Positions 6,654-9,960 of a stretch of DNA of 43,108 nt are shown here, one piece after another. The notes under the pieces were generated by a model. That model saw only the letters and a list, made by a program, of their open reading frames with translations, made no database searches and had not been told where the DNA came from. Source of the stretch: a virus; the IMG/VR virus record IMGVR_UViG_3300032331_002702, positions 1 to 43,108 of that record; one strand, given 5' to 3'. Both the position numbers and the translations under genes were made by a program. The stretch's first letter is position 1. Each line of letters starts with the position of its first letter.

Positions 6654-7034
6654 TTACGCGTTTTCAGTGCTCGCAACTTCCGCATGTGCGGTGCTTTGAC
6701 TGTTACGAGATGGGCGACCGCGTTTAACTTCAACACCCGATGTTTTAGCTGCTAGTGCCTGTTGGCGTTTACTATTTACATTGACCGGACGGCCTTTACT
6801 TACTGTTCCACCCGCTGCTACCTTCTCGGCGCGTGCGGCTAGTGTCGCTTGACGTTTTGATCCTGCTACAGATGGTCTACCACGTTTCAATTCTCCAGCA
6901 GCACGTTTAGCTTCTCTATCGGCAATTTTCTTCTGGCGAGCGCTGTCAGGATTTGATGGGCGGCCTAATGCCTTTGCTACGTTTGTTTCTACGTTCGCTA
7001 CTGCTGTTACTGTTGATGGTTTTTTCTTACTCAT
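6654..7034 (-). CDS. Tandem GRP-motif (AT-hook-like) basic protein
   Basis: 126 aa, Lys/Arg/Ala-rich with four GRP motifs at residues 24-26, 52-54, 81-83 and 106-108 (e.g. LKRGRPS, SKGRPVN, VKRGRPS), each followed by a SKRQ/SARQ segment. The 28-29-residue period is a clear internal repeat. RGRP cores are the DNA minor-groove contact of AT-hooks, so binding to AT-rich DNA is likely; silencing, compaction or anti-restriction roles are inference. Close paralogue at 9661-9960. Confidence 0.75.
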   Translation of the reverse strand: MSKKKPSTVTAVANVETNVAKALGRPSNPDSARQKKIADREAKRAAGELKRGRPSVAGSKRQATLAARAEKVAAGGTVSKGRPVNVNSKRQQALAAKTSGVEVKRGRPSRNSQSTAHAEVASTENA

Positions 7035-7765: not shown

Positions 7766-8059
7766 TTAGTTTTTTAATCCTACTTCACCACTTGCTATCC
7801 ATTCTTCAACTGTACAGTAATATTCAATATATGTTGTGTCTGTCCACGTTGACATGTTTTTATATACTTCTGTTTGGGTATAATGGTTCCACGCTGCGGT
7901 TGAATCATAACAGGGCATTTTGAAGAAATCCGTTGTGTATCCTGTTTTTCCTTTACTATCCTGATATTCATGTGTTGCTTTATACATAAATCCTGTTTCG
8001 TCTTTTCTACAAGCAACCATACTTACTATCACTGATGCGAACAATACTATCTTTTTCAT
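7766..8059 (-). CDS. Small lipoprotein of a three-member family
   Basis: 97 aa. MKKIVLFASVIVSMVACRK has a lipobox with Cys17. The mature part shares a plan with 8369-8647 and with the end of 8700-9581: YKATHEY near the acylated Cys, then an aromatic/Thr strand, an EVYKN...D(S/T) stretch and a closing IEYYCTVEEW. Anchored in the envelope by lipid; role unknown, exclusion of other phages is one possibility. Confidence 0.75.
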   Translation of the reverse strand: MKKIVLFASVIVSMVACRKDETGFMYKATHEYQDSKGKTGYTTDFFKMPCYDSTAAWNHYTQTEVYKNMSTWTDTTYIEYYCTVEEWIASGEVGLKN

Positions 8060-8340: not shown

Positions 8341-8372
8341 TAAATATATGATGCCTGATCCTAGAAGCCTAT
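8341..8372 (-). promoter_or_regulatory. Early-type promoter for 8317
   Basis: ATAGGCTTCT ... TATATTTA; its TAG is the stop of 8369-8647. Confidence 0.65.
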
Positions 8373-8647
8373 CGACCCCATTCTGCTGATGTGCAAAAGT
8401 ATTCAATACAGAACGAGTCACACTTGGCGATATTATCCTTATAAGCATCAGTCTGTTTATAAAATTCTAGCGCGGCAACCGAATCCTTTTCATCCCTGAA
8501 GAAAAAGTTAGTGGTAATAGATCCTGATAAATCTCCTCCACTGTAAAGCTTATCCTTATCTATGAAAGAGGCTTTATAAACGTGTCCACTTTTTTTACAG
8601 GCAATCATACTCATAAAAATAGCTGTAACGACAAATAATTTTTTCAT
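8369..8647 (-). CDS. Small lipoprotein of the same family
   Basis: 92 aa. MKKLFVVTAIFMSMIACKK with lipobox Cys17. Mature part: VYKASF after the Cys, FFFRDEKDS in the middle, TDAYKD...CDSF and a closing CIEYFCTSAEWGR, matching the plan of its neighbours. Paralogue of 7766-8059 and of the C-terminal part of 8700-9581. Confidence 0.75.
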   Translation of the reverse strand: MKKLFVVTAIFMSMIACKKSGHVYKASFIDKDKLYSGGDLSGSITTNFFFRDEKDSVAALEFYKQTDAYKDNIAKCDSFCIEYFCTSAEWGR

Positions 8648-8671
8648 GTGTTATAATTTTTTAGTGTATGT

Positions 8672-8703
8672 TAAATATAGGTCGAAGGACCAGGTGAGCC
8701 TAT
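8672..8703 (-). promoter_or_regulatory. Early-type promoter for 8647
   Basis: ATAGGCTCAC ... TATATTTA; its TAG is the stop of 8700-9581. Confidence 0.65.
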
Positions 8704-8963
8704 CGATTTAGTGCCTTCCACTCCTTGCGAGTGCCCCAGTACCTGATTCTTATCGAATCGGCCTTAGATGATAAGGTCCTATAAACTGGCGTCTCATAGT
8801 ACCACTCCCAGTCGGTGGTATCTTTTTTAGACACAAGGACAAAATCCATATTCGCAAGCACACCTACGTTCTCTAGATCCTGGTAGTAGGTGACCTCGTA
8901 AACGTAGGGCGAGCAAGACATCAAACTTGAGGCCAGTACCACCAGAAGGAAAATCTTTTGCAC
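8700..8963 (-). CDS. Possible nested lipoprotein from internal GTG start
   Basis: Val207 of the 293-aa frame is encoded by GTG. Starting there gives MQKIFLLVVLASSLMSCSP, with the lipobox Cys at position 17, exactly as in the three other small lipoproteins of this window (5161, 7766, 8369). The resulting 87-aa protein would be a normal family member. Either it is made separately from an internal start, or the upstream gene has become fused in frame to a former lipoprotein gene. Confidence 0.45.
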   Translation of the reverse strand: MQKIFLLVVLASSLMSCSPYVYEVTYYQDLENVGVLANMDFVLVSKKDTTDWEWYYETPVYRTLSSKADSIRIRYWGTRKEWKALNR

Positions 8964-9581
8964 AGCGCTTTTAACTTTCGAACATAAGGTAAAGGACACT
9001 TCCTTACCTCCTACTGGCTCTATCTCACTTTCCTCAGGCTCAAAGTACCAGCGCTGGTTGTTGTAGTCGGCGACCTCATTTAGCGCGGCAAGTTCCCCGT
9101 AGGAAGTTTTTACGTGCTCGAAGACCTTACTGTAATCTACCTTTCCTTCCTCAAGCACACTACCTAAGAGGTCGGCGAACCAGAAGTTAGAGGCATTGAC
9201 TGTTCCTTGATCTGTAGACACTCCACAGTAGTCGGCCTCTTTAACCTCGCTGATAAACATCCCAGTGTAGAGGCCTTTTAGGCGGTGTCGTTTAACAAAT
9301 TGATCCGCGTTACACCAGATGAAAATACAGTGCTTGTCCCTCAAGAGTGACACTTGCTTTTCGCCTACCGCATACATCCCTTCGCCTATCCTGGAGAAGT
9401 TCAACAGGCCGTAAGGCGAACCATGTCCCATCATCAAAATCTGATCGTGCGCTCGAATTTCCTTCTCCAGGCGGCCTCTGGAAACATCTTTCGTTAAAAC
9501 AGTAGCATCTTTTATATTCTGGTAGATAGGGCGAAGGAAATCTGTTGATCGATCGTCGGGGTGAATGATAAGTGTCCTCAT
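8700..9581 (-). CDS. Clan CD (caspase/CHAT-like) protein fused to a lipoprotein
   Basis: 293 aa. Residues 1-180 have two strand-ending motifs of clan CD cysteine peptidases: ILMMGHGSP (His53) and CIFIWCNAD (Cys90), with YTGMFISEVKEADYC after them. This fits a caspase/CHAT-type His-Cys dyad and is not a known T4 gene. Residues 208-223 form a second hydrophobic segment ending SSLMSC, followed by a domain resembling the neighbouring lipoproteins (VYEVTYYQ...YYETPVYRTL...IRIRYWGTRKEW). The gene is visibly richer in G+C than its neighbours, a sign of recent transfer. Peptidase activity and targets are unknown. Confidence 0.65.
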   Translation of the reverse strand: MRTLIIHPDDRSTDFLRPIYQNIKDATVLTKDVSRGRLEKEIRAHDQILMMGHGSPYGLLNFSRIGEGMYAVGEKQVSLLRDKHCIFIWCNADQFVKRHRLKGLYTGMFISEVKEADYCGVSTDQGTVNASNFWFADLLGSVLEEGKVDYSKVFEHVKTSYGELAALNEVADYNNQRWYFEPEESEIEPVGGKEVSFTLCSKVKSAVQKIFLLVVLASSLMSCSPYVYEVTYYQDLENVGVLANMDFVLVSKKDTTDWEWYYETPVYRTLSSKADSIRIRYWGTRKEWKALNR

Positions 9582-9605
9582 ATGCTGTAATTTTTTACTA
9601 TATTC

Positions 9606-9637
9606 TAAATATAAGGTGAGGGACTTAGGGGCCCTAA
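9606..9637 (-). promoter_or_regulatory. Early-type promoter for 9581
   Basis: TTAGGGCCCC ... TATATTTA. The -33 box sits in the loop of the hairpin 9628-9646. Confidence 0.65.
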
Positions 9638-9660: not shown

Positions 9661-9960
9661 TTAACCTTTTACTAATTCAACCACATCTGAATTACTCTTC
9701 TTAGCTAACTCAATTTGGCGTTTTGAATTTGGATTTACAGGTCTCCCTTTAGCCAAAGCAATTCCACTATTTACTTTTTCATTTCTCTTAGCCAATACTT
9801 CTTGGCGCTTGGATCCCTCAATTACAGGTCGACCACGTTTCAATGTTCCGGCTTCTTTCTTTGCCAAACGTTGTTGAATTTTCATTTGTCGAGCACTGTT
9901 TGGATTTGCTGGACGTCCGATTTGTTTTGTTTCTGTTGTGTTTGCTTGTTCTTTTTTCAT
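9661..9960 (-). CDS. Tandem GRP-motif (AT-hook-like) basic protein
   Basis: 99 aa with GRP motifs at residues 15-17, 43-45 and 72-74 (IGRPANP, LKRGRPVIE, AKGRPVNP), each followed by SARQ/SKRQ. Same 28-29-residue period as 6654-7034, of which it is a shorter paralogue. Predicted to bind AT-rich DNA; role in packaging, silencing or protection of phage DNA is inference. Confidence 0.75.
   Translation of the reverse strand: MKKEQANTTETKQIGRPANPNSARQMKIQQRLAKKEAGTLKRGRPVIEGSKRQEVLAKRNEKVNSGIALAKGRPVNPNSKRQIELAKKSNSDVVELVKG

What the first reader, a model, noticed from the sequence alone, without database searches (positions are those of the whole stretch)
8700..9581. Caspase/CHAT-like protein fused in frame to a lipoprotein
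His53 (MGHGSP) and Cys90 (IWCNAD) look like a clan CD dyad. The C-terminus, from an internal GTG at 8963, would be a lipoprotein with Cys17, as in three neighbours. If made as one chain, a peptidase would sit beside an internal membrane segment; if made as two, this is a nested gene pair. The higher G+C content suggests recent arrival. A phage-encoded caspase-like protein next to envelope lipoproteins could serve in inter-phage conflict or host takeover.
Basis: partly seen in the sequence, partly recalled or inferred. Interest (0 to 1): 0.7.

Follow-up and report, generated by a model that had tools for sequence, protein, structure and literature searches.

The report
Phage caspase-fold protease fused to lipoprotein
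This phage gene encodes a small protein predicted to fold like caspases and CHAT proteases, joined in one reading frame to a membrane lipoprotein; it belongs to a widespread but unnamed family of phage proteins that all keep the same catalytic residue pair, so it may be an overlooked cutting enzyme that phages make in their hosts.

Summary
Window 8700-9581(-) is an uninterrupted 293-codon ORF. Residues 1-~181 are a complete domain. Its AlphaFold2 model (pLDDT 95.8, 54-sequence alignment) matches clan CD peptidases in all 50 listed VIA-align rows: SAVED-CHAT Z 12.3, gingipain R 10.4, caspases, legumain, Craspase CHAT. H53 is present in 115/115 distinct relatives and C90 in 113/113 untruncated ones. 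No Pfam, PHROGs, NCBIfam, PADLOC or PDB-sequence family was recovered. The family is stand-alone (~180 aa) in over 60 distinct viral proteins, including Lak megaphages, and rare in Bacteroidota genomes (3/395).

Five related viral contigs carry the lipoprotein fusion; it arose once (SH-aLRT 98). The lipobox is intact in 5/5, both halves are under purifying selection, and the linker looks like a decayed promoter and leader of a once separate lipoprotein gene. The internal start is GTG, GTG, ATG, ATG or absent, so one chain is the conserved product; a nested second start is possible but not conserved. Recent arrival is not supported: the gene is syntenic in all five and one orthologue has 34% G+C.

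Most likely it is a cytoplasmic cysteine endopeptidase made as one precursor with a lipoprotein, probably split at Cys223 by lipoprotein processing. Activity and target are untested.

The parts
8700..9581 (-). whole fused ORF, 293 aa, ATG start
   Evidence: open and aligned in five contigs
9039..9581 (-). caspase/CHAT-fold domain, residues 1-181
   Evidence: AlphaFold2 pLDDT 95.8, pTM 0.90; VIA-align top 50 all clan CD; stand-alone homologues end here
9423..9425 (-). His53, predicted catalytic histidine, after strand beta3 (residues 47-51)
   Evidence: 115/115 distinct homologues
9312..9314 (-). Cys90, predicted nucleophile, after strand beta4 (residues 84-88)
   Evidence: 113/113 untruncated distinct homologues
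8964..9038 (-). variable linker, residues 182-206, with indels of whole codons between orthologues
8979..8987 (-). TTATGTTCG, decayed copy of the phage promoter motif (TTATATTTA), 24 bases before the internal start; translated as part of LCSK
8916..8963 (-). internal lipoprotein signal peptide, residues 207-222 (VQKIFLLVVLASSLMS), with the non-conserved in-frame GTG at 8963
   Evidence: hydropathy 2.48, lipobox pattern met in 5/5; starts
8913..8915 (-). Cys223, lipobox cysteine
   Evidence: invariant in all five fused proteins
8703..8915 (-). mature lipoprotein half, residues 223-293
   Evidence: paralogous to the lipoproteins at 7766 and 8369; pn/ps 0.21-0.38; every orthologue found is fused
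9606..9613 (-). TATATTTA promoter-like element of the fused gene
8369..8647 (-). neighbouring free lipoprotein, paralogue of the fused half
7766..8059 (-). neighbouring free lipoprotein, paralogue of the fused half
9661..9960 (-). GRP-repeat (AT-hook-like) small protein directly upstream in all five fused contigs

Best explanation
A phage-encoded, minimal clan CD cysteine endopeptidase (His53/Cys90) made as one precursor with a C-terminal lipoprotein. Steps: (1) the gene is transcribed from its own TATATTTA-type promoter and read through as one chain [supported by the conserved frame; transcription inferred]; (2) residues 1-181 fold in the cytoplasm into the caspase/CHAT fold [high-confidence prediction]; (3) His53 and Cys90 cut a specific protein [inferred from invariance]; (4) the internal signal (residues 207-222) sends the C-terminus across the inner membrane, Lgt lipidates Cys223 and signal peptidase II cuts before it, leaving the peptidase with a hydrophobic tail at the cytoplasmic face and releasing a 71-residue lipoprotein [inferred from the retained lipobox]; (5) the peptidase acts in host takeover or against a host defence protein, and the lipoprotein, like its free paralogues, works at the envelope, possibly in superinfection exclusion [inferred, weakest step].
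For: Fold: (all 50 listed rows clan CD, 158 of 185 residues aligned to SAVED-CHAT at 3.0 A). Catalysis: dyad plus Gly52, Trp89, Met108, Ser111 and Glu115 almost without exception over a very divergent family. One chain: frame kept in five contigs with indels of whole codons and synonymous divergence often near or above 1; no start codon at all between the domain and the lipobox in L091. Lipoprotein routing: positively charged stretch, 13-residue hydrophobic region and lipobox kept in 5/5 while their letters vary. Selection on both halves. Phage gene: 155 stretches encoding relatives in viral contigs against 3 of 395 Bacteroidota genomes.
Against: No activity, substrate or localisation data. 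Foldseek alone gave nothing below E 0.001, and profile comparison found no sequence relation to CHAT or C14. Clan CD folds can be inactive. An internal signal after about 206 residues may not be processed by Lgt and signal peptidase II. Neighbour genes are mostly of unknown function and point to no pathway.
Confidence: 0.55

Rival explanations
1. Nested gene pair: besides the long chain, translation restarts at GTG 8963 to make a separate lipoprotein (in some relatives perhaps also from an internal promoter).
For: An ATG or GTG lies 16-17 codons before the lipobox Cys in four of five. The linker resembles a promoter plus leader, best kept in L093: TTATGTTTA then ATG. Free paralogues start MKK... 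in the same way.
Against: No start codon there in L091 (ATA). In the window the promoter-like element is decayed (TTATGTTCG, 2.3 bits against 10.4-12.5) and in L092 it is gone.
Confidence: 0.2
2. The fusion is an accident of lost intergenic sequence with no joint function: the peptidase works as in its stand-alone relatives and the tail merely parks it at the membrane.
For: The peptidase is complete without the tail in nearly all the family. Single origin in one small clade. The linker is variable and looks like a former promoter.
Against: The lipoprotein half and its lipobox stay under purifying selection and no orthologue has reverted to a separate gene.
Confidence: 0.15
3. Catalytically inactive clan CD domain used as a binding module or scaffold.
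For: Many caspase-like domains in bacterial conflict systems are inactive (PMC7159879).
Against: Inactive domains usually lose the dyad; here it is invariant in all 113 untruncated homologues, Lak megaphages included.
Confidence: 0.08
4. Virion maturation protease or other structural-gene processing enzyme.
For: Phage proteases are best known from capsid maturation.
Against: Recurrent neighbours are small unknown ORFs, DUF932, GRP-repeat and T5orf172 genes; no recurrent neighbour was recognised as structural.
Confidence: 0.05

Closest known systems
CHAT peptidases of type III CRISPR systems (SAVED-CHAT 8tl0, Craspase TPR-CHAT 7y85)
   Same: Best fold match (Z 12.3 and 9.1). The aligned ranges put H53 and C90 close to the proven dyad H585/C627 of Craspase (PMC9729208).
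   Different: No sequence relation detected, no TPR or SAVED sensor domain, phage-encoded, about 180 aa stand-alone.
Gingipain R (RgpB, family C25)
   Same: Second-best fold match, Z 10.4; small sheet between beta3 and the next helix; His/Cys dyad after beta3/beta4.
   Different: Secreted and multi-domain; no sequence relation detected.
Caspases and metacaspases (family C14)
   Same: Fold (Z 8.5-10) and dyad arrangement.
   Different: No sequence relation detected by profile comparison; no caspase-type activation loop was examined.
Caspase-like third gene of a chromosomal HATPase / receiver-like / caspase-like operon (L178, L179)
   Same: Distant homologue by sequence (hhalign 97.4%, E 1e-11; HMMER E 2e-12 and 2e-7); keeps GHG and the Cys.
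   Different: Chromosomal, in a three-gene operon, no lipoprotein; itself undescribed as far as searched.
Phage-encoded lipoproteins (for example superinfection-exclusion lipoproteins such as Llp of T5 and Ltp of TP-J34; from own knowledge)
   Same: Small phage lipoprotein with a lipobox.
   Different: No sequence relation shown; here fused behind a peptidase domain.

Membership tests
Clan CD cysteine peptidases | Six-stranded sheet of the caspase type (PMC4357240) | tested here: met
   Model strands 3-6, 26-29, 47-51, 84-88, 103-106, 178-181; VIA-align top 50 all clan CD
Clan CD cysteine peptidases | Catalytic His at the C-terminal end of beta3 and Cys at that of beta4 | tested here: met
   H53 follows strand 47-51, C90 follows strand 84-88; invariant. 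Residue-level superposition was not available
Clan CD cysteine peptidases | Glycine next to the catalytic His | tested here: met
   G52 115/115, G54 114/115
Clan CD cysteine peptidases | Endopeptidase activity dependent on the dyad, with P1 specificity | not testable with these tools
   needs purified protein
CHAT family (PF12770) | Sequence match to the family profile | tested here: not met
   no Pfam match for any of 54 members above cut-off; hhalign with CHAT domains probability 0.3%
Peptidase_C14 (PF00656) | Sequence match to the family profile | tested here: not met
   no Pfam match; hhalign probability 0.4%
Gingipain family C25 | Sequence match to the family | tested here: inconclusive
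   no Pfam match; no direct profile comparison was made
Bacterial lipoproteins | Charged n-region, hydrophobic h-region and lipobox ending in Cys | tested here: met
   5/5 fused proteins
Bacterial lipoproteins | Signal peptide at the N-terminus of the chain | tested here: not met
   In the long chain the signal lies at residues 207-222; it would be N-terminal only if translation starts at 8963

The most novel reading that the evidence does not exclude
A large, so far unnamed family of phage caspase-fold proteases is a general host-takeover or counter-defence weapon of Bacteroidota phages, derived from or sharing ancestry with the effector of a chromosomal kinase/receiver/caspase module; in one phage lineage it became a self-sorting precursor whose lipoprotein signal splits protease and envelope lipoprotein to opposite sides of the inner membrane.
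Probability: 0.2. Interest if true: 0.85.

Novelty: new variant of a known kind. Interest (0 to 1): 0.6.

Why it matters
Caspase-fold proteases are known in bacteria mainly as defence effectors (CHAT proteases of type III CRISPR, conflict systems). A compact, catalytically conserved family spread over phages of Bacteroidota, Lak megaphages included, was recognised by none of the four family libraries tried, and a survey of 224 jumbo phages that includes Lak-B8 contains neither the word caspase nor CHAT (PMC7824862). If active, it is a ready source of substrates that phages need cut, and the fused form would show how one precursor can serve both sides of a membrane.

Tried and rejected
Recent horizontal arrival from G+C: rejected (same upstream gene in five contigs, orthologue L093 near its background). 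Functional internal promoter in the window: not supported, element decayed. Known family by sequence: none in Pfam, PHROGs, PADLOC, NCBIfam or PDB sequences; the isolated weak matches (for example one member to Peptidase_C50, E 0.13) were treated as noise. Foldseek in the viral library gave nothing convincing, only a weak entomopoxvirus caspase-like row. The full-length model from five sequences was poor (pLDDT 56.5), so no claim is made on the fold of the lipoprotein half; its VIA-align list is mostly flavodoxin-like rows and was not used. Plasmids: no match for the domain. Free-standing orthologue of the lipoprotein half: none found in viral contigs or the phage collection. Operon partner: no conserved neighbour of known function. 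A first tree left out four fused rows by mistake and was replaced. Papers: no report of a phage caspase was found; most subscription papers are not held in that library.

Full report
OBSERVATION. The ORF at 8700-9581(-) is real: 293 aa, ATG at 9581, no stop inside. His53 and Cys90 are in MGHGSP and IWCNAD. The in-frame GTG at 8963 is codon 207 and Cys223 is the 17th residue from it. The window is a virus record with ATP-dependent DNA ligase and HD-type phosphohydrolase genes and a repeated promoter-like element, TATATTTA, 17-32 bases before most start codons examined.

THE DOMAIN IS A FAMILY. A profile of the first relatives found 155 viral stretches that encode the domain. After removing identical copies, over 60 viral proteins of about 180 aa end just where the window's domain ends. 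Relatives also occur in Lak megaphages of Prevotella under code 15 and in 42 bacterial genome contigs, mostly Bacteroidota MAGs, some of them probably phage contigs. In a draw of 395 Bacteroidota genomes only three have a match, so it is mainly a phage gene. His53 is present in 115 of 115 distinct proteins and Cys90 in 113 of 113 in which that stretch is not cut off. No member reaches a cut-off in Pfam or NCBIfam, and PHROGs, PADLOC and PDB sequences gave only scattered weak matches.

FOLD. With 54 sequences AlphaFold2 gives pLDDT 95.8 and pTM 0.90. Foldseek alone is inconclusive (best E 1e-3), but VIA-align over its candidates lists clan CD entries only in its top 50: SAVED-CHAT Z 12.3 (158 residues, 3.0 A), RgpB 10.4, caspases 8.5-10, legumain 9.4, Craspase CHAT 9.1. 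The model has six strands, H53 right after the third and C90 right after the fourth, a glycine beside the His, and a small extra sheet between strand 3 and the next helix; these are features the clan CD review describes (PMC4357240). The aligned ranges fall on known dyads: Craspase residues 534-715 match model 1-184, which puts H53 and C90 near H585 and C627 (PMC9729208). There is no detectable sequence relation to CHAT or C14, so it is a separate family with the clan's fold.

THE FUSION. Five contigs carry it: the window (also L001, 100% identical), L002/L091, L003/L050, L013/L092 and L014/L093. They form one clade inside stand-alone members (SH-aLRT 98), and all have the same GRP-repeat gene upstream. 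The lipoprotein half was found only in fused form, but it is paralogous to two free lipoproteins next door. pn/ps is 0.17-0.32 in the domain and 0.21-0.38 in the lipoprotein half. All five keep a charged stretch, a 13-residue hydrophobic stretch and the lipobox.

ONE CHAIN OR TWO. Between domain and lipobox the start codons are GTG (window), none (L091), ATG (L050), GTG (L092) and ATG (L093), 16-17 codons before the Cys; the window has further GTG/TTG/ATG codons in that stretch, and L093 a second ATG. The linker LCSKxKxxM reads like a translated promoter and leader: TTATGTTTA in L093, TTATGTTCA in L091, TTATGTTCG in the window, 24 bases before the internal start, against TTATATTTA or TTATATTCA before real genes. 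It is the best or second-best match in the ORF in three of the five, but only 2.3 bits in the window against 10.4-12.5 for real promoters, and it is gone in L092. The simplest history is that a separate lipoprotein gene lost its promoter, and its leader became the linker. The five sequences are related, so these counts are not independent.

G+C. The window's copy has 47.6% (GC3 55.6%) in a 32% genome, but orthologues in the same place have 44, 46, 41 and 34%. This shows drift or exchange between relatives, not recent arrival of a new gene.

HOW IT LIKELY WORKS. See Best explanation. Shown by computation: fold prediction, dyad conservation, fusion, single origin, selection. Inferred: proteolysis, membrane insertion, cleavage at Cys223, role. 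The neighbours are small early-type genes of unknown function with DUF932 and T5orf172 genes recurring, which fits host takeover better than virion building but does not prove it.

A LEAD. Two chromosomal distant homologues (L178, L179) are the third gene of a tight operon after a HATPase_c protein and a receiver-like protein. Profile comparison with the phage family gives 97.4%. The operon matched nothing in PADLOC. It may be a signalling or defence module whose effector shares ancestry with the phage protease.

Noticed in passing
L178:1357-3362 and L179:25-2148: Three-gene operon in two Bacteroidota genomes: HATPase_c protein, receiver-like protein of about 240 aa without Pfam match, and a caspase-like protein distantly related to the phage family; no PADLOC match. 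Possible undescribed signalling or defence module.
   Followed up: partly
L018:4001-5254: Directly behind a full-length family gene lies an ORF that looks like an HNH endonuclease (no Pfam match), followed by a 54-aa fragment of a second copy of the family's C-terminus: may be an invaded duplicate.
   Followed up: no
window 9661-9960(-) and 6654-7034(-): GRP-repeat (GRPxxxxSKRQ, AT-hook-like) small proteins, two per genome, recurring near the family gene in 13 locus groups.
   Followed up: partly
window, upstream of most minus-strand genes, e.g. 9588-9613 and 8654-8679: Repeated promoter-like element TATATTTA followed by an A-rich leader, 17-32 bases before start codons; many copies are preceded by CTAGG- or TTAGGCTT-like sequence.
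   Followed up: partly
L145:1418-2314: A family member of 298 aa with a large insertion inside the domain, next to a single-stranded-DNA-binding-like gene, in a Desulfuromonadales MAG.
   Followed up: no
L128, L133, L139: Related copies in Verrucomicrobiaceae and Rhodoferax MAGs; in L133 and L139 the copy lies between a radical-SAM-like gene and a repeat protein gene, outside any obvious phage context.
   Followed up: no
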